Below are positions 364 through 20,507 of a stretch of 64,000 nucleotides of DNA, one piece after another. Position 1 is the first letter of the stretch, and each line of letters starts with the position of its first letter. This stretch comes from Xanthomonas codiaei (GTDB taxonomy: Bacteria > Pseudomonadota > Gammaproteobacteria > Xanthomonadales > Xanthomonadaceae). The translations under genes and the position numbers were made by a program. The notes under the pieces were generated by a model. It saw nothing but the letters and a program-made list of their open reading frames with translations, was not told the DNA's origin and ran no database searches. The DNA is taken from assembly GCF_002939785.1 (NCBI RefSeq), contig NZ_MDEC01000014.1, forward strand, positions 32,831 through 96,830. Direction: 5' to 3'.

Positions 364-3300
364 CTAGTCCGGCAACCAGGCGGCTCGCCAGGTGTCCAGA
401 TGGCTGCCGCTGAGCATCCAGTCGCGCCGCACGACCTCGCGCAAGGTCTCGCCCTTGGCGCGCGCTGCGGCCGGGTCGGCCAGGTGCTCGCGGATCGCGC
501 CGATCCAGTCGCGATAGCGGTTCTTCACCAGCGTCACCGGCAGGGTCCCCTGGTAACAGCGCACGTCGCTGGCGATCACCGGATAGCCGCAGGCGCCATA
601 CTCGAGCAGGCGCAGGTTGCTCTTGCACTCGTTGAACAGGTTTTGTTCTACCGGCGCCAGCGCCAGATCCAGATCCAGCGCCGCCAGCGCCGCGGGGTAC
701 TGGTCGATCGGCACGCCCGGCTGGAACTGGTGAATCTGCTGGCGCAGCGCGAACGGGTACATCCCCATGAACACCCATTCGACTTCGTCAGCCAACTCGC
801 GCACCACGTCGGCAATCAGTTCTAGGTCGCCGGTATGGCTGGCGCCGCCAGCCCAGCCGATCCGCGGCCTGCCACCCTGGCGTTCGGCCCGCGCAGGCAG
901 ATGTTCCCACCAATGCGGCGGCAGGCGGTTTTCCGCCACGCGGATATCGCGATGCAGCCCGGCAAACGCCTCGGCCAGGGCAGGGGTGGAGACCACGAAG
1001 CGGTCCACCAGGCCCAGCCCGCGCCGTACGGTCTTGAGAATGTCCTTGGGCATGTGTTCGCGATGGGCATTCTTCAGCGGCAGATTGGGCAGGTAGTCGT
1101 CGAGCTCGTAAACCTTGAACGCGCGCGACAGCGCCTTCATCCGCCGCATCGCCTCCAGTCGCGCCTCGCCGACCTGCCGTTGCAGGATCACCACGTCGGG
1201 ATCCTGACGCGCCAGTTCGGCGATCTCCAGATAGCCGTTGAACAGTACGCCTTCGGCCAGGCCGGCCTCGCGCAGGGCGCGCAGCGGCTGGATCACCCGA
1301 TAATGCCCGCAGCCCTCGATGTCGGCCGGCAATGCCATCACCCGCGGCAGCGGCCGCCACGATTGCAGTGGACGCCAGCTGGCGCGCGGGTCGGCCAGCT
1401 GGAAGCCGGCGCCCGGGTCCAGCGAAAACCCCGGGTTGTAGGCCGGGTCGTTGGCCATCAGCGGCAGCCAGCGCGCATACATCGCTTCTTCGTCCAGCGC
1501 GGTGACGGCAGGAGGCTCCAGCGGGTCGACCAGCAACTGCGCGCGTGCGGCGAACACATTGAGGTAGCCGGCCTGGTGCAGGCGCAGGCATAGGTCTGCA
1601 TCGCTCCATGGCGCCAGCTCCGGCTCCAGCGCAAAACCGCCGGCTTCCAGGAACAACTGGCGCGGCAGCATCAGGCACTCGCCACTGAGCGCGGCATAGT
1701 TCTGGTCCAGCTGCAGGCGTTGCAGGTAACCGGAGTCGTCGAAGGCACTGCCTGCGAAGGCCCGCGCCACCGGCGCCCCCAGGCCCAGCAACAGGCCAGC
1801 GTGGTGCACGGTGCCGTCGCCGCGCAACAGCTTGCCGCCCACCGCGCCCACCTCCGGCCGCAGTGAGTGGTTGAGCAACTGCTCCAGCCAATCGGCCTTC
1901 ATCACTGCCGCGCCTGCGGCCAGCCACAGCAGCACATCCCCACGCGCATGCTCGGCGGCTGCGTTGCAGACTGCTTCGCGCGACGGCTCGGCGGCAAAGC
2001 GCAGTACACGGATTTGTTGCATCCCCAACGCATCGATGCCGGCCAGCCAGTCGCGCAGCTCCGGCTGGCTGCTGGCGCGGTCCAGCAGCAGCACTTCGTA
2101 ATGCGGGTACGCCGTGTTGGCCAGGATGCTTTCCAGGCAGCGCTGCACCTGTGCCAGGCGGCCATCGACCAGCACCAGAATGCTGACCAACGGCTGCTGC
2201 GCGTGCCGGTACTCCAGCGCATGACGGCCCGGGCCGGCGCTGTGTACCTGCGCGTCCACATACCCACGTGCGGCCAGATGCCGCGCAATGGCCTGGCGTT
2301 CGTCGGCATCGCCGTGCCGGGTCTGGGGGGAGGCCACCAGCAGCGGTTCGGCGATGTGCTGCACACCGGCCAGCCCGTGGCGTTCGACCAGCCCCAACTG
2401 GTAATCCAGCTCGAAGGCCGCGCCCGGACCTGCGGGAAATCCGCCATCGGCCACCAGCGTGGCCTGGCGAAACAGCCAATGCCGCGACAGCGTGGAAGGC
2501 GCGCTCAGCAGCGCGTCCAGATACAGCGCCGGCCGCAACGCCAGCCCCAGCTGGCGGTCGTCCAGCGCGACCACTTCGTCGGCATAGACCGCCTGGCAGG
2601 TATCCGGCAGCGCGAGCAGGCCCAACGCCACCACGGTCAGGCCGCTGAGGGTAAACAGCGCGCCGGCATCGACCAGCAGCACCCAATCGATGGCCTGCTG
2701 GGTGGCGACGGCCTGGTTGAGCGCCGGCACCAGGCCGTCGCTGTCGATCAGCACCCCACGTTCGGCGTCACGGACCTGCGCCGGCGAGGCGCTGAGCACC
2801 CAGGCCTGCTGGTGTGGATAGCCGCCGGGCGCCTGCAGGCTGGCCAGCGTGGCGGCCACGGCCGTGGCATCGCCCTCGCGATCAATCAGCATCACCGCAA
2901 TGCGCGGCCCGCCGCCATGCGCCTGTAGCCGGGCATCGATCAGTGCGCGCTGCACATCGCTGGGATGGCGCACACCCAGCCAGGTGGCCGGCGAGACCTG
3001 CTCGACCATGCCGGCGCTGCGCATCAGCGCATTGACCAGATCCACCGACTTGAACACGCGCGCCTTGTGCGGGCTGAGCGGCGCCACCCGCACCTGCCGG
3101 TTGTCGCCGTGCTCGCGTCGCCAGCCGAGCTGACGGATGCCCTCGCGCAGGTTCTCATGGCCCTGATCGCCGACCCCGACCTGATCGCGGCCGGCCTGGC
3201 TGAACTGCGCGCTGGACACGCGAAACTGCGTGAGCGGACTGGCCAGAAACGCCAGGTTGCCGTGGCGCAGCAGCTTGACGTAGATCGCCAGATCGCCCAC

Positions 3301-3915
3301 CCAGTCGATGGCCTTGCCGTTAAGCGCCATCAGCCCGTCGCCCAACGCCAGCAGATCGGCACGCCGTGCCAGCACGCAACTCGGCTCGCCAATGAAGTTG
3401 ATGGCGTGGTCGGCCAGGAACGACACCAGCTCCGGGCCGTCGATCAACACATCGTCGGCGAACGGAAAACACGTGGCCGGGATATCCGGCAGTGGCTGGC
3501 CATCGTCATCGATGCGCTGCCGGCGCGAAGAGGCCATGGCCGTGCCCGGATTGCGCTCGATCGCCGCCACCAGCTGTGCAATGCACTCCGGCGCCAGCAC
3601 ATCGTCGTCGTGCAGGAATTTGACGTATTCGCCCTGCGCCAGGCCAATCCCCTTGATCGTGCTGAGGAGCTCGCCAAGCCGCGGTGTGTTGCGGTGGTAG
3701 CGGATCGGGAAGGGCGCACCGGCCAGCCGCGTTGCCACCACTGCCTCGATCGCGCCATCGGCATTGTCGTCGCAGACCACCAACTCCAGCGCCGGATAGG
3801 TCTGCGCTAGCGCGCTCTCCAGCGCCTGCGCAAAGTAGCGCGGCTTGTAGGTCGGCATGACGATGCTGACCAAGGCATCGCAAATCATCGGTAATCGATC
3901 ATCTTGAACAGTCAA
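364..3915 (-). CDS. giant multidomain glycosyltransferase, probable flagellin glycosyltransferase
   Basis: A 1183-residue protein. Residues about 15-250 are a GT-A family 2 domain (VSIVMPTYKP, then a DDD metal motif in KFLHDDDVL). A second, weaker family-2-like segment follows at about 340-560, and a third near 580-800 begins PLVSILVLVDG. The last 330 residues resemble a GT-B (family 4) transferase (RIGWAGGASHTGD). Large proteins of this kind transfer sugars to flagellin in pseudomonads, and this gene ends the glycan island, so flagellin glycosylation is the best inference. The most upstream start is TTG at 3915. ATG at 3888 (MICDALVSIV) is an alternative, and neither has a strong ribosome binding site. 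The acceptor and donor sugars are not determinable here. Confidence 0.85.
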   Translation of the reverse strand: MTVQDDRLPMICDALVSIVMPTYKPRYFAQALESALAQTYPALELVVCDDNADGAIEAVVATRLAGAPFPIRYHRNTPRLGELLSTIKGIGLAQGEYVKFLHDDDVLAPECIAQLVAAIERNPGTAMASSRRQRIDDDGQPLPDIPATCFPFADDVLIDGPELVSFLADHAINFIGEPSCVLARRADLLALGDGLMALNGKAIDWVGDLAIYVKLLRHGNLAFLASPLTQFRVSSAQFSQAGRDQVGVGDQGHENLREGIRQLGWRREHGDNRQVRVAPLSPHKARVFKSVDLVNALMRSAGMVEQVSPATWLGVRHPSDVQRALIDARLQAHGGGPRIAVMLIDREGDATAVAATLASLQAPGGYPHQQAWVLSASPAQVRDAERGVLIDSDGLVPALNQAVATQQAIDWVLLVDAGALFTLSGLTVVALGLLALPDTCQAVYADEVVALDDRQLGLALRPALYLDALLSAPSTLSRHWLFRQATLVADGGFPAGPGAAFELDYQLGLVERHGLAGVQHIAEPLLVASPQTRHGDADERQAIARHLAARGYVDAQVHSAGPGRHALEYRHAQQPLVSILVLVDGRLAQVQRCLESILANTAYPHYEVLLLDRASSQPELRDWLAGIDALGMQQIRVLRFAAEPSREAVCNAAAEHARGDVLLWLAAGAAVMKADWLEQLLNHSLRPEVGAVGGKLLRGDGTVHHAGLLLGLGAPVARAFAGSAFDDSGYLQRLQLDQNYAALSGECLMLPRQLFLEAGGFALEPELAPWSDADLCLRLHQAGYLNVFAARAQLLVDPLEPPAVTALDEEAMYARWLPLMANDPAYNPGFSLDPGAGFQLADPRASWRPLQSWRPLPRVMALPADIEGCGHYRVIQPLRALREAGLAEGVLFNGYLEIAELARQDPDVVILQRQVGEARLEAMRRMKALSRAFKVYELDDYLPNLPLKNAHREHMPKDILKTVRRGLGLVDRFVVSTPALAEAFAGLHRDIRVAENRLPPHWWEHLPARAERQGGRPRIGWAGGASHTGDLELIADVVRELADEVEWVFMGMYPFALRQQIHQFQPGVPIDQYPAALAALDLDLALAPVEQNLFNECKSNLRLLEYGACGYPVIASDVRCYQGTLPVTLVKNRYRDWIGAIREHLADPAAARAKGETLREVVRRDWMLSGSHLDTWRAAWLPD

Positions 3916-3948
3916 ATGCTGTATCCACGGAGGGGAACTTTTCGGCTT

Positions 3949-4905
3949 TCAGTTCATTAGCACCGCGATCAAGTTGCCAGGGCTGGTGTCCGGCTGACGC
4001 AACATGATGCGATACGGCTGGGCGCCATTCGCGCGCCGAATCGTGCCTATGTCCAGGATTGAACGTCGCATTAAGAAAACCGCAGGAGCACTCCTCTGTC
4101 CTGGGCGCAGCACGCTGGCAATCGCACTGGCTGAACCGGATAAATAGGTGACGCCAGCAGATGCCTCAGCGACCTGAATACAGCCCAGGCTGCGCCGGTA
4201 GAATTCCAGCTGCGGCCCTAGCGCCTGTGCCGCAGTCGCGGCCAGTTCCACCACGAACTCGCTTTCGGGTGCCTGGATCTTCAGGGCCAGCAGCGCCTCC
4301 AGAAAGGGCAGCGGCGTGTTCAGTACATGTAGACGCTGCAACATGCCATATGCGTACAGTTCTGCTAGGACGACACGCAGCTCATCCTCCAGAGTCTGAT
4401 CCTGATCGAAGGCGAGCATCTGGTCCCAATCGCAGCTTCTGGCGATTGCATCGAGCCTGGTGGCGATCTGATGAGAGCGCAGATCGACGAAGCCGTCTTC
4501 AATGAGCCGCGGTGAAGGTTCGTCGTGCAAGCCGCGTAAGTCGGTCGAAGTGAGGCCGACAACTGGGAAGCGCAGGAGATTGCCCTGATCCTTCTCGATC
4601 AAACTGGAGATGAAGGCTGTCACGCTCATGGTCTGGATACCGAGCGTTGCGAAAAAATCACTTAGCGCAGTGCCCAGGCGCAGGTCATCTACGCCAGGAC
4701 GATGGCAGTCCAGGACGATATCTCCCACGTGCAGCTCGCTCCTGGCAGTTTCGAAGTCCAGCACTCGAATGCCATCCAAATCATCGGGGATTTGGCGCGG
4801 ATACACGATGCCTGATAGCTGAATGGAATTCAGCACTAGGAACCGTTTGAAGAAATTGAGTGCCGGACTCTGCAACGCCCAGCCAGCTGCATAAATTCGC
4901 ATCAT
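3949..4905 (-). CDS. hypothetical protein of the flagellin-glycan island
   Basis: A 318-residue protein I do not recognise. The N-terminus (MMRIYAAGWALQSPALNFF) and the following stretch with GIVYPRQIPDDLDG and GDIVLDCHRPG look like an alternating strand-helix fold, perhaps a degenerate nucleotide-sugar or Rossmann-type domain. No catalytic motif, signal peptide or membrane helix is evident. Its ATG overlaps the stop of the upstream methyltransferase gene (ATGA), so the two are translationally coupled, and the glycosyltransferase gene follows after 33 bases. It looks less GC-rich than its neighbours, suggesting separate acquisition. A role in sugar modification or transfer is inferred from position only. 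Confidence 0.8.
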   Translation of the reverse strand: MMRIYAAGWALQSPALNFFKRFLVLNSIQLSGIVYPRQIPDDLDGIRVLDFETARSELHVGDIVLDCHRPGVDDLRLGTALSDFFATLGIQTMSVTAFISSLIEKDQGNLLRFPVVGLTSTDLRGLHDEPSPRLIEDGFVDLRSHQIATRLDAIARSCDWDQMLAFDQDQTLEDELRVVLAELYAYGMLQRLHVLNTPLPFLEALLALKIQAPESEFVVELAATAAQALGPQLEFYRRSLGCIQVAEASAGVTYLSGSASAIASVLRPGQRSAPAVFLMRRSILDIGTIRRANGAQPYRIMLRQPDTSPGNLIAVLMN

Positions 4906-5561
4906 GGCTTCCTGAATTCAAATAGCATGGTGTCGCCGACTTCAATATCCAGACCTTGGTCGTTGCGCATCTGGTGGGGATAGAAGATTGCGCTTTGCCC
5001 ATCTTTAAGTCCGCAACACAGAGTCGAGAATGCGGCGACTTCTTCAAGCCCGTTTTCGCGTGCAAGCGTGCGTACTTCGTCCGGCACAAAATGGCGGTAA
5101 TGCCATTTGTAACCCGTGTAGGGCATGACACTCTCATTGGGACAGGAAATGAAAAGTTGCCCGCCGCGTTTCAGGGATTTGCTCAACACCCAGAAAAGAG
5201 CTTCATGATTCTTGACATGCTCTAGCGACTCCATGCTCATGACGAAGTCGAAGCACTGCTCGGGTAAATCGAAGGGAAACAACTTGGCTGCCCAAATGAT
5301 GTTTGGGGCGTGAATCTTGCGGCGCGCTACTGCAACACTTTCCTCCGATCCGTCAATTGCGAGAATCGAAGCCTGGGTTTCGCGCGCCACCAACGCTGAT
5401 CCATATCCAGAACCGCAGAACACGTCCGCGCCGAAAAGCTGGGCATGACCATTAGGTAGGCGCGAGGCTGCGTAACGATATCGCCACAAGTGGTCTCCGC
5501 CGACCAGATTATGGTCGAGCGTGTGATATCTCTCTCCGCTTTTCAGGGAGTAATCTTTCAT
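4902..5561 (-). CDS. class I SAM-dependent methyltransferase
   Basis: A 219-residue methyltransferase. The SAM-binding glycine motif is GADVFCGSGYGSA (about residues 44-56), followed by an acidic residue in ILAIDGSEES and a motif-IV-like region FDFVMSMESLEHV. C-terminal segments such as KWHYRHFVPDEV match the UbiE/sugar O-methyltransferase style. In the Pseudomonas syringae viosamine pathway a methyltransferase adds a 2-O-methyl group to the flagellin sugar, and this gene is the natural candidate for that step. The target hydroxyl is inference. Composition looks AT-richer than the flagellar genes. The start ATG at 5561 lies 18 bases after the upstream acyltransferase gene. Confidence 0.85.
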   Translation of the reverse strand: MKDYSLKSGERYHTLDHNLVGGDHLWRYRYAASRLPNGHAQLFGADVFCGSGYGSALVARETQASILAIDGSEESVAVARRKIHAPNIIWAAKLFPFDLPEQCFDFVMSMESLEHVKNHEALFWVLSKSLKRGGQLFISCPNESVMPYTGYKWHYRHFVPDEVRTLARENGLEEVAAFSTLCCGLKDGQSAIFYPHQMRNDQGLDIEVGDTMLFEFRKP

Positions 5562-5579
5562 CGTGCAGCCTCCTTGGGA

Positions 5580-6203
5580 CTAATTGCCATAGACATGGAT
5601 GGGTTCGTCATAGCGGGTGTCGTACACCGTGCGGCTGGGCACGTCCCGGTCATACAGCCGTGGCCAGCCCAGTTCACAGTGGCGGCCGATGCGGATGCCG
5701 GGGCCGACCGTCGCTCCCATACGCAGAATGGCGTGCGCGCCGATCTCGGTGCCGTGGCCGATACTGACGCCGATGTCGCACCAGCATGAGGGGCGCAGAT
5801 GTACGCCGGCGCCGATCTTGACCCCGCTATGCAGCACGGTGTTGTAATCGACACGGCTGCCCACGCCGACCACCACGCCGTCGCCGATGAAGCAGTTGCG
5901 GCCGATCACGGCATCGGCAGCGACTACGGCCGAACTGCTGACGAAAGGCTCCAGGCTAAAGCCGCGTGCCATCGCCAGCTGCATCAGCTCCATGCGTTTG
6001 AAGTTGCCGAAGCGTTCGTCGTAGGCGATGAACAGTCTGTCCGCAGCCGGGTCCAGGCCATCTAGCGCGTCCAGGTCGAAGCTATAGTCGGGGCGTAGCG
6101 AAACCTCGATCCTGCGTACGTCGGCCTGCGGCTCGGCCTGCTTCCAGGCATTGAAGACCTGCTCCAGGCAGATGCCGGTTCCGATGACGCATCTAGAGGC
6201 CAT
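5580..6203 (-). CDS. left-handed beta-helix (hexapeptide) acyltransferase-like protein
   Basis: A 207-residue protein. The C-terminal half (about 90-195) consists of imperfect hexapeptide repeats (VSSSAVVAADAVIG, GVVVGVGSRV, IGHGTEIGAHA, VGPGIRIGRH), the signature of trimeric acyltransferases such as PglD/NeuD. The N-terminal half (IGTGICLEQVFNAW, LFIAYDERFGN) resembles their small alpha/beta sugar-binding domain. It overlaps the upstream Rieske gene by 11 bases. It is the second such enzyme in the island, so one may N-acylate the 4-amino sugar while the other acts elsewhere. The short tail after the helix is atypical. The substrate is unknown. Confidence 0.75.
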   Translation of the reverse strand: MASRCVIGTGICLEQVFNAWKQAEPQADVRRIEVSLRPDYSFDLDALDGLDPAADRLFIAYDERFGNFKRMELMQLAMARGFSLEPFVSSSAVVAADAVIGRNCFIGDGVVVGVGSRVDYNTVLHSGVKIGAGVHLRPSCWCDIGVSIGHGTEIGAHAILRMGATVGPGIRIGRHCELGWPRLYDRDVPSRTVYDTRYDEPIHVYGN

Positions 6204-7338
6204 GTTCTGTCTCCATCAGTGTTGCGTACCAGCGCTCCACCAAGCGGTTGGTGAATTCGTAGACCCCCTGGGTCGGCATCGGTGCGTCCATGTGCAGCGC
6301 CGATTGCACATGCTCCATGATCTCCACGTCCTCGCCTGTCACCAGCCGGCTGCCATGCATGTGCGAGAGTAGGTTCCAGCTGGAAAAAGCATAAGGCTTC
6401 TTCTTGCGCGTGGTGAACCAATAGATTTCCAGGTCGGTCCTGTCCGGGGCCACGGGAATGTGATGTTCCAGGGTGAAGGAATAGCCGCCGTTGGGGCAGG
6501 CGATGTGCATGTTGGGAAAAGCAAGCCAGTTGAAATAGGCGTCCTGTTCCCCCCAGCGCTCGACCATCTCATGGAACGGCATCGGCTTGGGCTCGGTGAT
6601 CGGCGCGTCAGCGCCGGCCGAGCTGAAACGGCGCATCTCCGCGCGTAGCCCGGTGGGGCTGGTGTCGGGCAGGGGACGGAGGCCTTCGGCCGCCAGTTCA
6701 GTATCGACATAGGGGATGAAGTCGAATTCCCGGGCGAGGCTCTTGGGGTGGACAAAGCGTGGGTGATTGGCGTCGCGTAGGTTCTCGTACGCCAGCTTCC
6801 AGTTGAACTTGCAGTGCCAGGTGGTCACCATCACCTCGCCGTCGTACAGGTTGGAGCTGCTTTCCAGCATGGAAATGAAGTGCGCGGGGAACTGTTCCTC
6901 GATTGGCATCGGGTCACTGTCCAGGTTGACGAACAGCACGTTGCCGATCGCGTGCAAGGCGAACTCACGCAGCCTGAGCTTCTGCTGTTCTGCCCGGCTT
7001 ATGCGATACAGGGCACGACATTCGGGAATATTCTTGATCGCGCCATCCTGGTCGTAGCTCCAGGCGTGATAGGGGCAAACCAAGGGACGTCGTCCGGTTG
7101 GCGCGGTCTGCAGCGGCGCACTGCGGTGCAGACATACATTCTCGAATGCGCGCAACTGACCGTTGAAATTCTGGATGACGACCGGGATGCCGGCGATCTT
7201 GCGGGTGATGAAGTTGTTGTTTTCCGTCAGCAGGGTCTTCAGACCTGCGAAAAGCCAAACCTTGCGAAAAATCTTTTCCTGCTCGCGGGCAAAAATCTCC
7301 GGTGACAGGTAGTACCTGGGGTGCATTCGCGAGCGCAT
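6193..7338 (-). CDS. Rieske [2Fe-2S] non-heme iron oxygenase
   Basis: A 381-residue protein with the layout of an aromatic-ring-hydroxylating oxygenase alpha subunit. The Rieske cluster ligands are C69, H71, C88 and H91 (C-x-H-x16-C-x2-H). The catalytic domain has the mononuclear iron motif NLRDANHPRFVH (H192, H197) with a likely third ligand in GEDVEIMEHVQ. No reductase or ferredoxin gene is in the island, so electrons must come from elsewhere. It lies between two acyltransferase genes and overlaps the downstream one by 11 bases. Such enzymes hydroxylate, demethylate or desaturate. A role in oxidising the sugar or its acyl side chain is inference from context. Confidence 0.85.
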   Translation of the reverse strand: MRSRMHPRYYLSPEIFAREQEKIFRKVWLFAGLKTLLTENNNFITRKIAGIPVVIQNFNGQLRAFENVCLHRSAPLQTAPTGRRPLVCPYHAWSYDQDGAIKNIPECRALYRISRAEQQKLRLREFALHAIGNVLFVNLDSDPMPIEEQFPAHFISMLESSSNLYDGEVMVTTWHCKFNWKLAYENLRDANHPRFVHPKSLAREFDFIPYVDTELAAEGLRPLPDTSPTGLRAEMRRFSSAGADAPITEPKPMPFHEMVERWGEQDAYFNWLAFPNMHIACPNGGYSFTLEHHIPVAPDRTDLEIYWFTTRKKKPYAFSSWNLLSHMHGSRLVTGEDVEIMEHVQSALHMDAPMPTQGVYEFTNRLVERWYATLMETEHGL

Positions 7339-7352
7339 GAGTCACTGCCTTG

Positions 7353-7994
7353 TCAAATGTCTTTCTGGAACACGATGCGGGCAGGGTTGCCGAACACACT
7401 TGCGCCGGCCGGCACGTCTTTCATGACCACCGCGCCGGCCCCGACGACCGCGCCGTCACCGACCTTCACGCCGGGCATCAGGGTGGCGCGCGGATGTACG
7501 GTGACGAAGTTACCAATCTGGACGCCGCCGCCCATGAATGCCATTGCGCCAACGTGCACGTAGTCACCGATGCGCACGTCGTGCCCGAGCATGCTCTGGG
7601 CATGGATGGTGACAAAATCGCCGATGCGCACGTCTGGCCCGGAATGGACCATGAGGCCAAAAAAGCAGCCCTGGCCGAAATGCACCCGCCTACTCAGACG
7701 GACATCGGTAAGGATGGGAATGAACCGCCCACCTTTTTCGAGGATCGGCAGGGCATAGCGGTGGCGATCGTAGGGGTTGCCCATCGCACAGACGAATACA
7801 TCGTCAGGCTGTGGCAGGTAGCTCATCGGATCGCCGACGATCGGAGTGTCGACCCCGTAGCTGTCCAGGATATCGGCGCGGCTGTCCAGAAACCCGCCGA
7901 TCAGCCAGTCCTTGCCATGCCCTGCGTCGTCACGCATTTGCTCCAGGACTTCGCGGCCCCAGCCGCTGGCGCCGATAATGAGTGCGCGTTCCAT
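7353..7994 (-). CDS. PglD/NeuD-family sugar O/N-acyltransferase
   Basis: A 213-residue protein. The N-terminal domain starts MERALIIGASGWGREVLEQM, the usual opening of the PglD/NeuD family (Rossmann-like sugar-nucleotide domain). From about residue 95 come hexapeptide repeats ending in GAVVMKDVPAGASVFGNPA, the typical C-terminus. The start ATG at 7994 overlaps the stop of the upstream dehydrogenase gene by one base. An upstream in-frame ATG at 8042 would add 16 residues and is unlikely. PglD N-acetylates a UDP-4-amino sugar. Here the donor may be the hydroxyacyl group made by the adjacent ACP/KAS III/SDR genes, which is inference. Confidence 0.85.
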   Translation of the reverse strand: MERALIIGASGWGREVLEQMRDDAGHGKDWLIGGFLDSRADILDSYGVDTPIVGDPMSYLPQPDDVFVCAMGNPYDRHRYALPILEKGGRFIPILTDVRLSRRVHFGQGCFFGLMVHSGPDVRIGDFVTIHAQSMLGHDVRIGDYVHVGAMAFMGGGVQIGNFVTVHPRATLMPGVKVGDGAVVGAGAVVMKDVPAGASVFGNPARIVFQKDI

Positions 7995-8746
7995 CAGAGC
8001 ACCGCCCCGCCGTCCATGACCAAGCTGGTGCCGGTGACCCAACGACTGGCGTCGGCCAGCAGGTAAACTGTAGCGTTGGCGACATCGTGCGGCGTGCCCA
8101 GGCCCAGTGGATGGCGCGCGCGTTGCTGGTTCAGCATTTCGTTGAGTCCGTCGTCTTCACCCCAAAGACGCGGAGTGGGCACCGCCGATGGTGAAATCCC
8201 ATTGACTCTCACGCGGTGCTTCGCCTGTTCCAACGCTAAGCACCGGATAATGCCCAGCAGGCCGGACTTCATTGCCGAGTACGGCCCCACGCCGCGTGTA
8301 CCGATATGCGCGGAGGTGGACAGCATGAACACGATGGAGCCTTGAGCATTAATGGAATTGGCTTGCAGTAGACGTTGCGTCAGCATGACCGGTGCCAAGA
8401 AATGAACCTGGTACATGCGCGTCATCAGCTCCTCCTTCAGCTGTCGGATCGGCGACAGCATCTGCCCACCGAAGCAGTGCACGACGCCGTCGATGCGCTG
8501 GCTGGCTTGCACCAGCCGCTCGCGGTCCTCCGACACTGTCAGGTCGGCTTGCACCTGCACATGCCCGTCGCCGGCCAGTTGCGCATGGGTCTGCTGGAGG
8601 CGCTCGGGATCGCGGCCGCTGATGACCAGGCGCGCGCCGCGCCGTGCGCAGGTGAGTGCGATTTCCTGGCCAAGGCCGGATGATGCGCCGGTGACCAGGA
8701 TGGTCTTGCCAGTCAGGGAAAAGGCGTTGCGAGTCGGATTGCTCAT
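7994..8746 (-). CDS. short-chain dehydrogenase/reductase, 3-oxoacyl-ACP reductase-like
   Basis: A 250-residue classical SDR. The dinucleotide motif TGASSGLG (residues 19-26), an S-x12-Y-x3-K active site (LSTSAHIG... YSAMK) and the C-terminal ASRWVTGTSLVMDGG match FabG-type reductases. The NNAG motif is replaced (VVHCFGG). Its ATG overlaps the upstream SDR stop by four bases. With KAS III and ACP genes nearby, reduction of a 3-oxoacyl-ACP to the 3-hydroxyacyl form is the expected reaction for at least one of the two SDRs. Which one does this cannot be read from sequence. The other might act on a sugar. Confidence 0.85.
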   Translation of the reverse strand: MSNPTRNAFSLTGKTILVTGASSGLGQEIALTCARRGARLVISGRDPERLQQTHAQLAGDGHVQVQADLTVSEDRERLVQASQRIDGVVHCFGGQMLSPIRQLKEELMTRMYQVHFLAPVMLTQRLLQANSINAQGSIVFMLSTSAHIGTRGVGPYSAMKSGLLGIIRCLALEQAKHRVRVNGISPSAVPTPRLWGEDDGLNEMLNQQRARHPLGLGTPHDVANATVYLLADASRWVTGTSLVMDGGAVL

Positions 8747-9516
8747 GCGTAGATGTCCATCGGCACGGTCAGGCCACCATCTACGAGGAAGTAGTTGCGG
8801 GTGACCCAGCGACTTGCGTCGGACAGATAAAACACTGCCGCGTACGCCACGTCTTCCGGTTCGCCCAGTCCCAGCGGGGTCAGTTTGGCGTGCTCGTCGA
8901 TGTTGGCCCCGCTCTGGTTGAGGCCCTCGAGCATCGGTGTGCGCACGTAGCCGGGCACGATGCAGTTGGCGCGAATACCGTGCTTTGCCACTTCCAGCGC
9001 CAGAGTGCGCATTGCGCCGAGCAGCGCTCCCTTGCTGGCCGAGTAGGCGGCAGTGGCCACAGGGCCGATGTGCGAACCCACCGCAGAGATAAATAGAATC
9101 GAGCCTTTTGCGTTGATGCGCTTTTTCGTCAGCAGGCCGCGCGTCAGCAGCAGCGGTGCATAGACATTGCTGGCGAAGGTTTCGTCCAGATGCGCGCGGT
9201 TGATCATCCGGAATGGTGCTAGCCGGGCGATGCCGGCCGCGTGTGCGACACCATCCAGGACACCGACCGAAGCCACGAGATGGTCGATGTCCTCCTGCTT
9301 GTCCAGGTCGGCGATCACCTGCTCATGCCCTGTGCCTTCGAGTGTGGCGAAGGTATCGGCCAGACGCGCTTCGTTGCGGCCGCTGATGATCAGTTGCGCG
9401 CCCATCTCCGCGCAGCTCAGTGCGATCTGCCGTCCGATGCCTGAAGACGCTCCCGTGACCAGGATGCGCTTGCCCTGCAATGAGAACGGGTCGTTCGGAT
9501 CGAGGGAGGTATTCAC
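8743..9516 (-). CDS. short-chain dehydrogenase/reductase, 3-oxoacyl-ACP reductase-like
   Basis: A 257-residue classical SDR, paralogous to the next gene. It has TGASSGIG near residue 22, HAAGIA in place of NNAG, and Y-S-A-S-K in AAYSASKGALLG. The start is taken as GTG at 9516, which overlaps the KAS III stop as GTGA and lies just before the conserved fold. An upstream in-frame ATG at 9573 would run 57 bases into KAS III. The C-terminus ends in VDGGLTVPMDIYA. It is the likelier partner of KAS III by adjacency, giving 3-hydroxyacyl-ACP. That assignment is inference. Confidence 0.85.
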   Translation of the reverse strand: MNTSLDPNDPFSLQGKRILVTGASSGIGRQIALSCAEMGAQLIISGRNEARLADTFATLEGTGHEQVIADLDKQEDIDHLVASVGVLDGVAHAAGIARLAPFRMINRAHLDETFASNVYAPLLLTRGLLTKKRINAKGSILFISAVGSHIGPVATAAYSASKGALLGAMRTLALEVAKHGIRANCIVPGYVRTPMLEGLNQSGANIDEHAKLTPLGLGEPEDVAYAAVFYLSDASRWVTRNYFLVDGGLTVPMDIYA

Positions 9517-10553
9517 GACTCGATTAAATCCGGAAACATCCCACCTTCGATATCGACCAGGCAGGTACCCCAAGACAACCCGATCCCGAAACCTGACAGC
9601 AGTACACGCTTGGTGCCAGATTCCAGTTCCTTGTTGATCCGTGCGGTCATGGTGAGGGGCAACGATGCGCCGCTGGTGTTGCCGAAGTCGCGCAGGGTGG
9701 ACGGCACCTTCTCGACCGCAAGGCCGAGCTTCTTGCGAATGGTCTCGTTGATCATCCGGTTAGCCTGGTGAAACACGAAATAATCGATGTCATCCTTGCT
9801 TACACCAGCATAAGCGATCAATTTTTCAACTGCGGGAGGAACGCGCTGAGTCGAGAAGCTGAGCACTGCGGTGCCATCGAGCTGCAGATCGGTGGCCTGG
9901 TGCCAGCGATCCTTCTCGTTTTCACGATAAGGCATCAGGTGCTGGATCGCGACAGGCTCGCGTTGACCACCCACCGGCAGGATGATGGCTCTGTAACCGC
10001 TCCCGTCGCTGTTGAGGTCGAAATACATCGGCGCTGCGTTCTGGTCGAACTCCAGCGCGGTGGCGGTGCCGGAGTCCGAGAAGATCGGGTCTTCCAGGTT
10101 GGCGCTGCGGTCGCCGACCAGCAGCAGGCCCTTCTTGACGCCGCCGGCGGCGATCATCGAGCCGAGCAGGTTGATACCGAACGGGTAGGCCGAACAGCCC
10201 AGATTGACGTCGAAGGCGACCGTGGCATGCGATAGCCCCAGCCGATCCTGCAGAATGATGGCAGTGGCCGGGATCGGGTAATCCGGCGACTGCGTCACCA
10301 CGATCAACGCGTCGATCTCCTCGCGCTTCCACTGCAGCTTTTCCAGCAGTACCTCAGTCGCATCGAAGGCCAGGTCCGAAAAGCACTGCCAGGGCTGGGA
10401 CATGCGCCGGGTCTCGATGCCGATGTTGCGCACCAGACGCTCGCGTTCGGAGCGGATCTGCGGCCGGCAATCGGTGAGGTTGGACACGACCCGCTTCGGC
10501 ACGCAGGTCGCCATGCCGGCAAAGCGGACGTTGTGCAGCGTGGAGGTCGGCAT
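9513..10553 (-). CDS. 3-oxoacyl-ACP synthase III (KAS III/FabH-like)
   Basis: A 346-residue thiolase-fold condensing enzyme with the KAS III triad C120 (VNLGCSAY), H262 (FVFHQANRM) and N292 (FGNTSGAS). These enzymes condense acetyl-CoA with malonyl-ACP to acetoacetyl-ACP. The gene follows a small ACP gene by five bases and is followed by two reductases, so the set can make a 3-hydroxybutyryl-type thioester. That is the acyl group reported on modified viosamine of Pseudomonas syringae flagellin. The start ATG 10553 (MPTSTLHNVRF) is preceded by GAGGCG. It lies outside any fatty-acid (fab) operon, supporting a specialised role. Confidence 0.9.
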   Translation of the reverse strand: MPTSTLHNVRFAGMATCVPKRVVSNLTDCRPQIRSERERLVRNIGIETRRMSQPWQCFSDLAFDATEVLLEKLQWKREEIDALIVVTQSPDYPIPATAIILQDRLGLSHATVAFDVNLGCSAYPFGINLLGSMIAAGGVKKGLLLVGDRSANLEDPIFSDSGTATALEFDQNAAPMYFDLNSDGSGYRAIILPVGGQREPVAIQHLMPYRENEKDRWHQATDLQLDGTAVLSFSTQRVPPAVEKLIAYAGVSKDDIDYFVFHQANRMINETIRKKLGLAVEKVPSTLRDFGNTSGASLPLTMTARINKELESGTKRVLLSGFGIGLSWGTCLVDIEGGMFPDLIES

Positions 10554-10558
10554 GGTGC

Positions 10559-10783
10559 TTACGCCTCGGTCAGTTTGTAGAGATCGCCAACGGTCACGGC
10601 TGCGGCCAGGTCCTCGCCGGTGATGGTCTTGCCGTATTCCATGTCGAACATGACGATCACGCCCAGCGCTGCCAGCGAGTCCCACTCCGGCAATTCCAGC
10701 AGTACGGTGTCCAGCGTGACCTCCACTGGTTCCTGAAAATCGGTAGCGGAGAGGAAGTTCTCGATAAACGTTGCCTGGGTCAT
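10559..10783 (-). CDS. acyl carrier protein, island-specific
   Basis: A 74-residue acidic protein with the phosphopantetheine attachment site S36 in PEWDSLAALG (the DSL motif). Its size and helical pattern fit a discrete ACP. It lies between the sugar aminotransferase and the KAS III genes and should carry the acyl intermediate for the flagellin sugar. The ribosome binding site AAGGCGAG is five bases before the ATG. A separate housekeeping acpP is expected elsewhere in the genome. Confidence 0.85.
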   Translation of the reverse strand: MTQATFIENFLSATDFQEPVEVTLDTVLLELPEWDSLAALGVIVMFDMEYGKTITGEDLAAAVTVGDLYKLTEA

Positions 10784-10847: not shown

Positions 10848-11957
10848 TCATGTGGTCTGTTCGCCGGCGATCAGGTCGGCGATGGCATCGACCTGGTCGG
10901 CGGTGAGGCCGGGAAAGATCGGTAAGCACAATACTTGCGCAGCCACCGAACGCGCTACCGGCAGCCACGCCGGAGCCGACGAGGGCAGGGCGCGATACAT
11001 CGGAAAGTCGCTGATCAATGGATAGAAGTAGCGCCGCACCAGGATGCCGTGTTCGCGCATCAACCGGTACAGCGCATCGCGCGACAAGGGGTAGTCGTCC
11101 TGGACCAGGATCGGGAAGTACGCATAGTTGGCGCTGGACCGCGCCGAGCGCGCGACGCAATGGATGCCACGCACCTCGCCCAGGCGCTGCCGATACTGCG
11201 CGTCGATCGCGCCCCGCTGCGCGATGGCATCGTCGATATGCTGCAGCTGCAACAGACCAAAGGCGGCGCTGATCTCGTTCATCTTGCCATTGATGCCCGG
11301 CGCCACCACCGTGGTCTCGTCGACGAAGCCGAAATTCTTCAGGTGCCCGATGCGTTGATAGGTCTTTTGGTCGGGACAGACGATCGCACCGCCTTCGAAG
11401 GTGTTGAACACCTTGGTGGCATGAAAGCTCAGCACGCTCAGGTCGCCGTGACGCAGGATCGATCCGCCGTCGTCGCGCACGCCGAAGGCATGCGCGGCGT
11501 CGTAGATCACCTTGAGGTTGTAGATGTCGGCGATGCGCGTGATCGCGCTGGTGTCGCAGGCGGTGCCGTAGCAGTGCACCGGCATGATGGCGGTGGTCTG
11601 CGGGGTGATGGCCGCTTCGATCTTGGACGGGTCCATGTTGAGCGTCACCGGGTCGATGTCCACGAACACCGGGGTGATGCTCTTCCACAGCAGCGAGTGC
11701 GCGGTAGCCACGAACGAGTAAGGCGTGGTGATCACCTCGCCGGTGATGCGCAGCGCCTGCAGGGCGGTGATCAGCGCGGTGGTGCCGTTGGTCAGCAACG
11801 CCAGATGCGGCACGCCCAGGTAGTCGCACAGCGCCTTCTCGAGCGCATGATGCATTTCGCCACCATTGCTGACGATGCGGCTGGTCCAGATCCGTTCCAG
11901 GTAGGGCAGGAACTCCTCCAGCGGCGGCAGCAGCGGACTGGTGACGGGAATGGGCAT
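10848..11957 (-). CDS. vioA: DegT/DnrJ/EryC1/StrS sugar aminotransferase, VioA-like
   Basis: A 369-residue PLP enzyme. The Schiff-base lysine is K182 in LSFHATKVFNTFEGG. The N-terminus (SRIVSNGGEMHHALEKAL) and IYDAAHAFGV are family hallmarks. VioA-type members convert dTDP-4-keto-6-deoxyglucose to dTDP-viosamine (4-amino-4,6-dideoxyglucose), and the acyl and methyl genes downstream fit that product. The start ATG 11957 (MPIPVTSPLLPP) has GAGG upstream. An earlier in-frame ATG at 12035 would add an unconvincing extension. It is the first gene of the island, 116 bases after fleQ. That gap holds a 9-bp stem-loop at 11993-12014 and no obvious promoter. Confidence 0.85.
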   Translation of the reverse strand: MPIPVTSPLLPPLEEFLPYLERIWTSRIVSNGGEMHHALEKALCDYLGVPHLALLTNGTTALITALQALRITGEVITTPYSFVATAHSLLWKSITPVFVDIDPVTLNMDPSKIEAAITPQTTAIMPVHCYGTACDTSAITRIADIYNLKVIYDAAHAFGVRDDGGSILRHGDLSVLSFHATKVFNTFEGGAIVCPDQKTYQRIGHLKNFGFVDETTVVAPGINGKMNEISAAFGLLQLQHIDDAIAQRGAIDAQYRQRLGEVRGIHCVARSARSSANYAYFPILVQDDYPLSRDALYRLMREHGILVRRYFYPLISDFPMYRALPSSAPAWLPVARSVAAQVLCLPIFPGLTADQVDAIADLIAGEQTT

Positions 11958-12073: not shown

Positions 12074-13550
<1,477 letters not shown>

Positions 13551-13558
<8 letters not shown>

Positions 13559-19307: not shown

Positions 19308-20507
19308 TTACTGGAGCAGGCTCAGCACGTTCTGCGGAACCGACTTGGCCTGGGCCAGCATCGCGGTACCGGCCTGCTGCAGGATCTGCGTGCGGGTCAG
19401 CTCGGCGGTTTCCTTGGCGTAATCGGTGTCGCGGATACGGCTACGCGAGGCCGACAGGTTTTCCGAGGTTGCGCTCAGGTTGGCGATGGTGGAGGTGAAG
19501 CGGTTCTGCACCGCACCCATGTCGGCGCGCGAGGAGTTGACCGCGGTCAGCGCCTTGTCGACGATTTCCAGGGCCTTCTGCGAGCCGGCGAACGTGGAGA
19601 TGTCCAGGTTGCTCAGGGTCACTGCGGCGGAGCCGGAGGCCGCCGAGGCGGTCTGCAGGCCGGCACCGACGGTGACGCCGGTGGCGCTGGAGGTACCCAT
19701 GGTCAGCGAGGTGAAGTCCTGGCCGGCCTTCAGCGATTCCAGCTTCAGGTTGCCGCCGGTATCGATCGAGGCGTACATGCCGGTCTGGTCGAGCTTGTCG
19801 TTGATCGCCGCTGCGACCTTCTTGTTGATCGCTGCCGCGTCGTCGCCGTTGGCAATCTTGACGTCGCCGATGGTGACGGTCTTGGCGGTGCCGCTGGCAT
19901 CGTTGAACGCCAGCGAGATGCCGGTGATCGAGCCGGAGGCCGTCGCGGTGCCGGTCACGCCAGCGCCCGACACCGAGGCGGCGAAGTTCGCCTTGCCCAG
20001 CGAATCGACGTTGGCGTCGACGATGCTGTTGATGCCGATGGTCTGGCCGGCGTCGGCGCCGACCTGGAACAGCGCGCCGGAGAAGTCGCCGTTCAGCAGC
20101 TTGGTGCCGTTGAAGTTGGTCTGGTTGGCAACGCGGTCGATTTCGGCGGTGAGCTGCTTGACTTCGGAGTTCAGCGCGTCACGGTCGCTGGCCGAGTTGG
20201 TGGCGTTGGACGACTGCACCGACAGCTCGCGGATACGCTGCAGGTTGCTGCCGATTTCGACCATCGCGCCTTCGGCGGTCTGGGCCAGCGAGATGCCGTC
20301 GTTGGCGTTGCGCGAGGCGACGTCCAGGCCGCGGATCTGGGTGGTGAAGCGTTCGGAGATCGCCAGACCGGCGGCGTCGTCCTTGGCGCTGTTGATGCGC
20401 AGACCAGAGGACAGACGCTGGATGCTCGTCGACATGCTGGCGCTGCTGGTGTTGAGGTTACGCTGAGCGTTCAGCGACATTACGTTGGTGTTGATTACCT
20501 GTGCCAT
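19308..20507 (-). CDS. fliC: flagellin FliC
   Basis: A 399-residue flagellin with conserved D0/D1 ends (MAQVINTNVMSLNAQRNLN; QQAGTAMLAQAKSVPQNVLSLLQ) and a Ser/Thr/Ala-rich central domain at about 170-290. The flg22 region spans residues 30-51 and reads SAKDDAAG, with Asp at position 43. In X. campestris pv. campestris, Asp-43 versus Val-43 is reported to decide non-elicitation versus elicitation of Arabidopsis FLS2. The start ATG 20507 follows AGGAGAAATC. Two sigma-28-type promoters and a hairpin lie upstream. Glycosylation is expected from the island but sites cannot be read. Confidence 0.97.
   Translation of the reverse strand: MAQVINTNVMSLNAQRNLNTSSASMSTSIQRLSSGLRINSAKDDAAGLAISERFTTQIRGLDVASRNANDGISLAQTAEGAMVEIGSNLQRIRELSVQSSNATNSASDRDALNSEVKQLTAEIDRVANQTNFNGTKLLNGDFSGALFQVGADAGQTIGINSIVDANVDSLGKANFAASVSGAGVTGTATASGSITGISLAFNDASGTAKTVTIGDVKIANGDDAAAINKKVAAAINDKLDQTGMYASIDTGGNLKLESLKAGQDFTSLTMGTSSATGVTVGAGLQTASAASGSAAVTLSNLDISTFAGSQKALEIVDKALTAVNSSRADMGAVQNRFTSTIANLSATSENLSASRSRIRDTDYAKETAELTRTQILQQAGTAMLAQAKSVPQNVLSLLQ

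What the first reader, a model, noticed from the sequence alone, without database searches (positions are those of the whole stretch)
6193..7338. Rieske oxygenase embedded in a flagellin-glycan operon
The full set of Rieske (C69, H71, C88, H91) and mononuclear-iron ligands is present, and the gene overlaps an acyltransferase gene, so it is part of the island. Viosamine-type flagellin pathways described in pseudomonads need an aminotransferase, acyl-chain enzymes, a methyltransferase and glycosyltransferases, but no oxygenase that I know of. It may hydroxylate or otherwise oxidise the sugar or its acyl chain, giving a flagellin glycan not described there.
Basis: partly seen in the sequence, partly recalled or inferred. 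Interest (0 to 1): 0.75.

Follow-up and report, generated by a model that had tools for sequence, protein, structure and literature searches.

The report
Rieske oxygenase in flagellin-sugar operon
A plant-associated bacterium carries an oxygen-using enzyme gene inside the gene cluster that builds the sugar decorating its flagella, and relatives of that enzyme travel with genes that make the sugar's short acyl side chain, so it most likely oxidises that side chain.

Summary
Observation confirmed: window 6193-7338 (-) is an intact Rieske oxygenase alpha subunit with all metal ligands, seventh of 11 packed glycan genes beside fleQ/rpoN/fliC of a Xanthomonas genome. The locus is not new: Xanthomonas annotation lists 'Rieske 2Fe-2S family protein' XCV2007 here, and the gigX island of X. 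oryzae is reported to determine flagellin glycosylation (secondary sources; primary paper not held). I found no assigned chemistry. Comparisons narrow it. (1) The same 30 of 297 family genomes hold the oxygenase and the island's KAS III, 2.6-3.5 kb apart. (2) Outside the family, 13 of 14 loci of this oxygenase clade have KAS III nearby, in viosamine-, pseudaminic-acid- and O-antigen-type loci; 0 of 74 other sampled Rieske loci do. (3) In 20 Xanthomonas-type loci SDR-SDR-NeuD-oxygenase-LbH vary as a block, while VioA and the glycosyltransferase follow the species. (4) One Xanthomonas with a VioA-type aminotransferase but no KAS III lacks the oxygenase. Best reading: it oxidises the KAS III-derived N-acyl chain, perhaps on the nucleotide sugar. 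The overlapping LbH gene lacks the acyltransferase histidine. No structure or biochemistry was obtained.

The parts
6193..7338 (-). Rieske oxygenase alpha subunit (RO), the finding; by position the counterpart of XCV2007 and probably of the ring-hydroxylating dioxygenase of the gigX island (the latter recalled)
5580..6203 (-). LbH: hexapeptide-repeat protein of NeuD/PglD type without the catalytic His; overlaps RO by 11 bp; follows RO in 27 of the 28 RO reading frames (the other is at a contig end)
7353..7994 (-). NeuD/VioB-type N-acyltransferase with the conserved His-Asp (H138, D139 of the aligned protein); best solved relative VioB 7txp
7994..8746 (-). SDR1, short-chain dehydrogenase/ketoreductase; L031 and L034 have only one SDR
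8743..9516 (-). SDR2, short-chain dehydrogenase/ketoreductase
9513..10553 (-). beta-ketoacyl-ACP synthase III (KAS III)
10559..10783 (-). acyl carrier protein-like gene
   Evidence: called by coding score and position; 78-97% identical counterparts in the 19 other flagellar loci; no family scan of its own
10848..11957 (-). DegT/DnrJ/EryC1/StrS (VioA/DesI-like) sugar aminotransferase
4902..5561 (-). SAM-dependent methyltransferase
3949..4905 (-). 318-aa protein without Pfam or NCBIfam match, accessory; seen in 2 of the 19 other flagellar loci (one of the 19 is cut off before this point)
364..3888 (-). large glycosyltransferase (two GT2 stretches), probable VioT-like transferase
12074..13558 (-). 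sigma-54 activator, FleQ by context, upstream of the cluster
19308..20507 (-). flagellin FliC, the presumed target

Best explanation
The gene encodes an alpha-only Rieske non-haem iron oxygenase that tailors the N-acyl chain of the 4-amino-4,6-dideoxy sugar put on flagellin. Proposed route: VioA-like aminotransferase makes dTDP-4-amino-4,6-dideoxyglucose; KAS III and ACP make a short beta-ketoacyl chain; the NeuD/VioB-type acyltransferase puts it on the 4-amino group; the SDRs reduce keto groups (before or after transfer); the Rieske enzyme hydroxylates (or otherwise oxidises) the acyl chain, probably on the nucleotide-linked sugar, with the catalytically degenerate LbH protein helping to bind the nucleotide sugar; methyltransferase and the large glycosyltransferase finish the glycan. 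Shown here: gene identity, metal ligands, tight gene packing, linkage to KAS III acyl modules, exchange as a block. Inferred: acyl chain as substrate, order of steps, role of LbH. Unknown: position oxidised, and the reductase that feeds electrons (none seen in the cluster).
For: The same 30 of 297 family genomes have RO (E<=1e-30) and island KAS III (E<=1e-70), one RO always 2.6-3.5 kb from KAS III (start to start); none of the other 267 has either at those thresholds. 13 of 14 clade loci read outside the family have KAS III, with different sugars (VioA-type; PseC/PseH/PseI above cut-off in L071, PseG just below; O-antigen-type locus L075) and different acyltransferases (NeuD or GNAT), so what is shared is the acyl module. 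Of the 80 Rieske loci returned, the first 6 listed have KAS III; 0 of the other 74 do (0 of the 40 with 5 kb on both sides). Clade rows form one branch, SH-aLRT 100. In 20 loci RO distances co-vary with SDR2 (0.67), SDR1 (0.66), NeuD (0.58) and LbH (0.92) given RpoN, while VioA and GT follow RpoN at 0.98-0.99 (GT in 13 loci only). G017 has a VioA-type aminotransferase (65%), methyltransferases, an ATP-grasp gene and a GT (48%), but no KAS III, SDR, NeuD or RO in its island. F. psychrophilum makes an N-3,5-dihydroxyhexanoyl sugar with KAS, ACP, KAS, KR and PglD genes; its main text holds no 'oxygenase' or 'Rieske'; Flavobacterium L075 has such a set with RO inserted.
Against: No biochemistry and no structure model (job not finished). 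KAS III and ACP distances do not co-vary with RO (-0.14, -0.12), so the block argument singles out SDR/NeuD/LbH, not KAS III. Stand-alone RO-LbH pairs (class 2) in the second genus have no KAS III in the 20 kb read; a third G1011 copy (L070, contig end) has none; Niveispirillum L095, a split relative in an amino-sugar locus, has none in its 21 kb and is one of the 74 'others'. The sugar-versus-acyl test rests on one genome, G017, whose aminotransferase and glycosyltransferase are themselves diverged, so its sugar may differ too. LbH could still be an enzyme of another kind.
Confidence: 0.6

Rival explanations
1. The oxygenase acts on the sugar ring (C-H or amine oxidation of the deoxyamino sugar), not on the acyl chain.
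For: It lies in a nucleotide-sugar gene cluster, and LbH keeps an Arg that lines up with one conserved in the NeuD acyltransferases.
Against: The clade occurs with different sugars, VioA varies with the species and not with RO, and the one genome with an aminotransferase but no KAS III lacks RO.
Confidence: 0.2
2. The oxygenase acts on acyl-ACP before transfer, so that NeuD hands over an already oxidised chain (a variant of the best reading).
For: KAS III and SDR are the constant companions; RO lies between KAS III and SDR in L075 and L079.
Against: In Xanthomonas-type loci RO lies after NeuD and is coupled to LbH, which resembles nucleotide-sugar enzymes; in P. syringae the authors' scheme has dTDP-N-acetoacetylviosamine as an intermediate, i.e. 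reduction after transfer (PMC3927599).
Confidence: 0.3
3. The gene is an ordinary catabolic ring-hydroxylating dioxygenase carried along by chance in the island.
For: Nearest named families are glycine betaine, phenylpropionate, anthranilate and benzoate oxygenases.
Against: All six NCBIfam scores lie far below their cut-offs (best 94 against 670 bits); no reductase or beta subunit seen in the cluster; linkage in 30 of 30 genomes and in 13 of 14 outside loci.
Confidence: 0.03
4. RO and LbH form a two-gene unit that modifies some other molecule and was only recruited to the flagellar island.
For: Stand-alone RO-LbH pairs lie away from the island in the second genus (L036, L038, L053, L054, L056-L058), and tandem pairs occur (L046, L069).
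Against: The one stand-alone sequence in the tree (L036) is nested within the island clade, so it is more simply a derived copy; 7 of the 13 outside KAS III-bearing loci lack a detected LbH, so LbH is an add-on.
Confidence: 0.12

Closest known systems
gigX island of Xanthomonas oryzae (gigX1-gigX10) and genes XCV2000-XCV2013 of Xanthomonas strain Xcv 85-10
   Same: Same place (downstream of fleQ) and same gene order for XCV2013 to XCV2006: aminotransferase, ACP, oxoacyl synthase, two dehydrogenases, acetyltransferase, Rieske protein, hypothetical protein; gigX reported to determine flagellin glycosylation by MALDI-TOF and to be under RpoN2/FleQ.
   Different: Downstream genes differ (Xcv has a KdsB-type gene and hypothetical genes; the window a methyltransferase and a 318-aa gene). 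No chemical step is given to the Rieske protein in what I could read; the primary gigX paper (PMC6638077) is not held. From memory, its abstract lists a ring hydroxylating dioxygenase and says that deletion of each gene affected glycosylation; not checked here, and no gigX sequence was compared.
Viosamine island of Pseudomonas syringae pv. tabaci 6605 (vioA, vioM, vioT, vioS, vioB, vioR, acp)
   Same: Aminotransferase, methyltransferase, large transferase, KAS III, acyltransferase, ketoreductase, ACP.
   Different: No oxygenase and no second hexapeptide protein among its seven ORFs.
Flavobacterium psychrophilum O-PS R1 genes wfpC-wfpG (3,5-dihydroxyhexanoyl amide)
   Same: KAS, ACP, KAS, ketoreductase, PglD-type acyltransferase for an N-acyl amino sugar.
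   Different: No oxygenase named in the main text (supplement not read); Flavobacterium sp. CF136 (L075) has the same kinds of genes, in that order if the wfp letters follow the map, with RO between the second KAS and the SDR.
CMP-N-acetylneuraminic acid hydroxylase (CMAH), recalled, not tested
   Same: A Rieske enzyme that hydroxylates an N-acyl group on a nucleotide sugar.
   Different: Different protein family and organisms; no sequence comparison made here.
Alpha-only Rieske oxygenases such as glycine betaine (GbcA) and carnitine (CntA) monooxygenase
   Same: Domains, metal ligands, among the best family and PDB matches.
   Different: 94 bits against a cut-off of 670 for GbcA; no reductase gene in the cluster; biosynthetic glycan context.

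Membership tests
Rieske non-haem iron ring-hydroxylating oxygenase, alpha subunit | Rieske CxH...CxxH plus 2-His-1-carboxylate site | tested here: met
   C69, H71, C88, H91 and H192, H197, D337 invariant in 76 sequences; PF00355 and PF00848 above cut-off
Rieske non-haem iron ring-hydroxylating oxygenase, alpha subunit | own reductase gene nearby (usual, not strictly defining) | tested here: not met
   8 PF00175 matches in the genome, none on the cluster's contig C14; two other Rieske genes (C30, C31) each have one within about 2 kb. Ferredoxins were not searched; partners can be encoded elsewhere
Known catabolic RO families (GbcA, HcaE, AntA/AndAc, BenA) | score above NCBIfam equivalog cut-off | tested here: not met
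   best 94.3 bits against 670
Viosamine-type flagellin glycan island | VioA-like aminotransferase, KAS III, ACP, ketoreductase, VioB-type acyltransferase, methyltransferase, large transferase next to flagellar genes | tested here: met
   the ACP by position and conservation only
Viosamine-type flagellin glycan island | glycan contains N-acylated viosamine | not testable with these tools
   needs mass spectrometry or NMR
NeuD/PglD/VioB acyltransferase (for LbH, 5580-6203) | catalytic His of the hexapeptide acyltransferases | tested here: not met
   no column with His in more than 17 of 36 LbH, against 27 of 29 in NeuD
NeuD/PglD/VioB acyltransferase (for LbH) | left-handed beta-helix hexapeptide repeats | tested here: met
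   PF00132 8.4e-14
gigX island | gene deletion alters flagellin glycosylation | not tested
   reported for the ten-gene cluster in secondary sources only

The most novel reading that the evidence does not exclude
There is a distinct clade of Rieske oxygenases, found here in Alpha- and Gammaproteobacteria (wide sense) and Bacteroidota, whose job is to oxidise KAS III-derived N-acyl chains of amino sugars and nonulosonic acids on surface glycans. In one branch the oxygenase works with a dead acyltransferase-like protein (LbH) that holds the nucleotide sugar, and swapping the SDR-NeuD-oxygenase-LbH cassette changes the acyl group and so the flagellin glycotype.
Probability: 0.4. Interest if true: 0.72.

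Novelty: new variant of a known kind. Interest (0 to 1): 0.5.

Why it matters
The gene in the island is already on record, but its chemistry is not, as far as the listings of my searches show (open-licence papers only). If the reading holds, Rieske enzymes gain a new class of substrate (acyl chains of activated amino sugars), N-acyl glycan diversity gains an oxidative step beyond the fatty-acid-type genes, and the exchange of the SDR-NeuD-RO-LbH block gives a concrete, testable basis for flagellin glycan types in plant-associated Xanthomonas.

Tried and rejected
Rejected: an ordinary catabolic dioxygenase (scores and context). Rejected: RO acting only in flagellin systems (O-antigen-type locus L075). 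Set aside: LbH as a plain O-acyltransferase acting on the new hydroxyl, because no catalytic His is conserved. Led nowhere: relatives in viral contigs (none confirmed); plasmid tblastn, of the 30 rows listed of 947 all at 27-28% identity, only the Azospirillum hit H2 opened; promoter motif scan, a sigma-54-like site with one mismatch at 12046-12031 upstream of the cluster but similar one-mismatch sites elsewhere in the region, so not used; paper search for Rieske with viosamine/pseudaminic/legionaminic terms, none of the 40 listed of 206 holds 'Rieske'; Shewanella sfm paper, no 'oxygenase' or 'Rieske' in its main text (passages).

Gene calls are my own codon-score or longest-ORF calls. Of the 80 ROs, 5 (L091, L095, L120, L133, L144) were dropped by my length/completeness filter before alignment A4 and the tree. 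The tree is a quick one (SH-aLRT only). In it I first labelled 18 of 87 rows as KAS III context, including L036 and the third G1011 copy, which have no KAS III nearby: coded strictly (16 rows) the label needs 3 changes; with those two left out, 1. Distance correlations carry no significance test and pairs are not independent; in L046 I used the first of two ROs. That g1 is Xanthomonas rests on contig length 762289 shared by G159:C18 and Xanthomonas sp. Leaf131; which genus g7 is was not determined.

Full report
What is there. The open frame 6193-7338 (-) encodes 381 residues without a stop. It matches the Rieske domain and the ring-hydroxylating catalytic domain above Pfam's cut-offs. C69, H71, C88, H91 and H192, H197, D337 are invariant in the 76 Rieske oxygenases aligned. 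No characterised family fits: the best NCBIfam score is 94 bits against a cut-off of 670, and the nearest solved chains match at E about 2e-23. The gene sits in a tightly packed row on the - strand, in order: aminotransferase, ACP, KAS III, SDR2, SDR1, NeuD-type acyltransferase, RO, LbH, methyltransferase, a 318-aa protein of unknown family, and a large glycosyltransferase. Junctions from ACP to the 318-aa gene run from -11 to +18 bp; the first and last are 64 and 60 bp. That they form one operon is inferred. The row follows fleQ and rpoN, with fliS, fliD and fliC beyond. The window lies in a 5.04-Mb genome of the genus Xanthomonas: the same-genus genome G159 has a contig of the same length, 762289, as Xanthomonas sp. 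Leaf131.

What is already known. A Xanthomonas genome paper lists this stretch in its table of flagellar genes: XCV2013 aminotransferase, 2012 ACP, 2011 oxoacyl-ACP synthase, 2010 and 2009 short chain dehydrogenases, 2008 acetyltransferase, 2007 'Rieske 2Fe-2S family protein', 2006 hypothetical (PMC3826837, passages). Two secondary sources say that a ten-gene cluster gigX1-10 of X. oryzae determines flagellin glycosylation, shown by MALDI-TOF, and is under RpoN2/FleQ (PMC6859632 and PMC8657755, passages). The primary paper is not held; from memory its abstract names a ring hydroxylating dioxygenase among the ten genes and reports that deletion of each gene affected glycosylation. So a Rieske gene in this cluster is not new. 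The listings of my paper searches showed no chemical role for it; they cover open-licence papers only.

The oxygenase travels with KAS III. In a sample of 297 Xanthomonadaceae genomes, RO (E<=1e-30) and island KAS III (E<=1e-70) are found in the same 30 genomes, of two genera, and neither is found in the other 267 at those thresholds. By the coordinates of the two calls one RO starts 2.6-3.5 kb from the KAS III start in all 30. Outside the family I read 14 loci of this RO clade: L059, L068-L075, L077, L079 and L174-L176. 13 have KAS III; the exception, L070, is a third copy in one genome at a contig end. Three of these (L174-L176) were found after the pattern was noticed: of 299 genomes of one family, 4 have an RO at E<=1e-50; one (G840) was known already, and the 3 new ones all have KAS III in the locus. 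As a control, of the 80 Rieske loci kept by the genome scan the first 6 listed (two Xanthomonas, two Massilia, Azospirillum, Flavobacterium) have KAS III and 0 of the other 74 do; 40 of those 74 have at least 5 kb on both sides, and one of them, L095, is a split relative in an amino-sugar locus. The clade is one branch in the tree with SH-aLRT 100 (5 of the 80 ROs had been dropped before); with strict coding the KAS III label needs 3 changes because of two members without it.

Sugar or acyl chain. The companions of the clade share the acyl module, not the sugar. L071 has PseC, PseH and PseI above cut-off and PseG just below it. L075 in Flavobacterium has a flippase-type and a sugar-transferase gene and the order KAS-ACP-KAS-RO-SDR-NeuD-aminotransferase. 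Apart from RO these are the kinds of genes (wfpC-wfpG) assigned to the N-3,5-dihydroxyhexanoyl group of F. psychrophilum (PMC6519341, discussion section read). Five of the 13 outside loci also hold flagellar genes: flagellin in L059, L174 and L175; motAB in L176; flhA/flhB families in L079. Among 20 Xanthomonas-type flagellar loci, SDR2, SDR1, NeuD, RO and LbH vary together (RO-LbH 0.92, RO-SDR2 0.67, RO-SDR1 0.66, RO-NeuD 0.58 given RpoN), whereas VioA and the glycosyltransferase (13 loci) follow RpoN at 0.98-0.99; KAS III and ACP do not follow RO. Three Xanthomonas genomes have flagellin and FleQ but no KAS III and no RO. One of them (G017, L177) has a VioA-type aminotransferase (65% identical), two methyltransferases and a large glycosyltransferase (48%), with an ATP-grasp gene in place of the acyl module; because aminotransferase and glycosyltransferase are diverged, its sugar may differ too. 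The other two look eroded: G254 has a transposase frame and the glycosyltransferase, G175 aminotransferase pieces and the glycosyltransferase. Taken together this favours the acyl chain as substrate.

The partner LbH. LbH follows RO directly in 27 of the 28 RO reading frames; the 28th is cut by a contig end. It matches hexapeptide families and looks like a NeuD/PerB relative. In 36 LbH proteins no column holds His in more than 17, while N67, R70 and N103 are in all 36; in 29 NeuD proteins H138 is in 27. I read LbH as a protein that binds a nucleotide sugar but no longer transfers an acyl group; that is inference. LbH is detected in 6 of the 13 outside KAS III loci (L068, L069, L077, L174-L176; about 1.4 kb after RO in L174, a partial match in L176), so it is an addition in part of the clade. 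In P. syringae the authors' scheme has dTDP-N-acetoacetylviosamine as an intermediate (PMC3927599, section 7 read), which makes tailoring on the nucleotide sugar plausible.

Electrons. No reductase gene was seen in the cluster. The genome has 8 PF00175 matches, none on the cluster's contig, and two other Rieske genes have one within about 2 kb. The donor is unknown.

Verdict. The gene itself is known; the substrate class proposed here is a prediction. The structure job did not finish, so no fold or pocket evidence is offered.

Noticed in passing
L074:11686-13325 (-) and L095:9992-11352 (+): Split Rieske oxygenases in Azospirillum doebereinerae and Niveispirillum irakense: one protein keeps only the Rieske ligands, its neighbour keeps only the iron-site His pair and Asp, next to an SDR and a GNAT gene.
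   Followed up: partly
L036:10005-11772, L038, L053, L054, L056-L058: Stand-alone RO-LbH pairs (class 2, about 45-48% identical) away from the flagellar island in the second genus, in L036 beside a gene that looks by eye like purT; target unknown.
   Followed up: partly
L046:8224-11785 and L069:377-3899: Two RO-LbH pairs in tandem in one island, as if two oxidation steps or two alternative specificities were stacked.
   Followed up: no
L177 (G017): A Xanthomonas flagellar island with a VioA-type aminotransferase but an ATP-grasp gene and two methyltransferases instead of the KAS III/oxygenase module, so perhaps a different N-acyl route.
   Followed up: partly
L179 (G175) 1717-7426: Eroded island: aminotransferase in pieces, and an open frame made of TAL-effector repeats between it and the glycosyltransferase.
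   Followed up: no
window 3949-4905 (-): 318-aa protein without Pfam or NCBIfam match, seen in 2 of the 19 other flagellar loci (L039, L051); it sits between methyltransferase and glycosyltransferase.
   Followed up: no
L042 and L044 (G231, G159): KAS III and ACP are only 70-80% identical to the window's while VioA, FleQ and RpoN are 92-96%, so the KAS III-ACP pair has also been exchanged in some strains.
   Followed up: no
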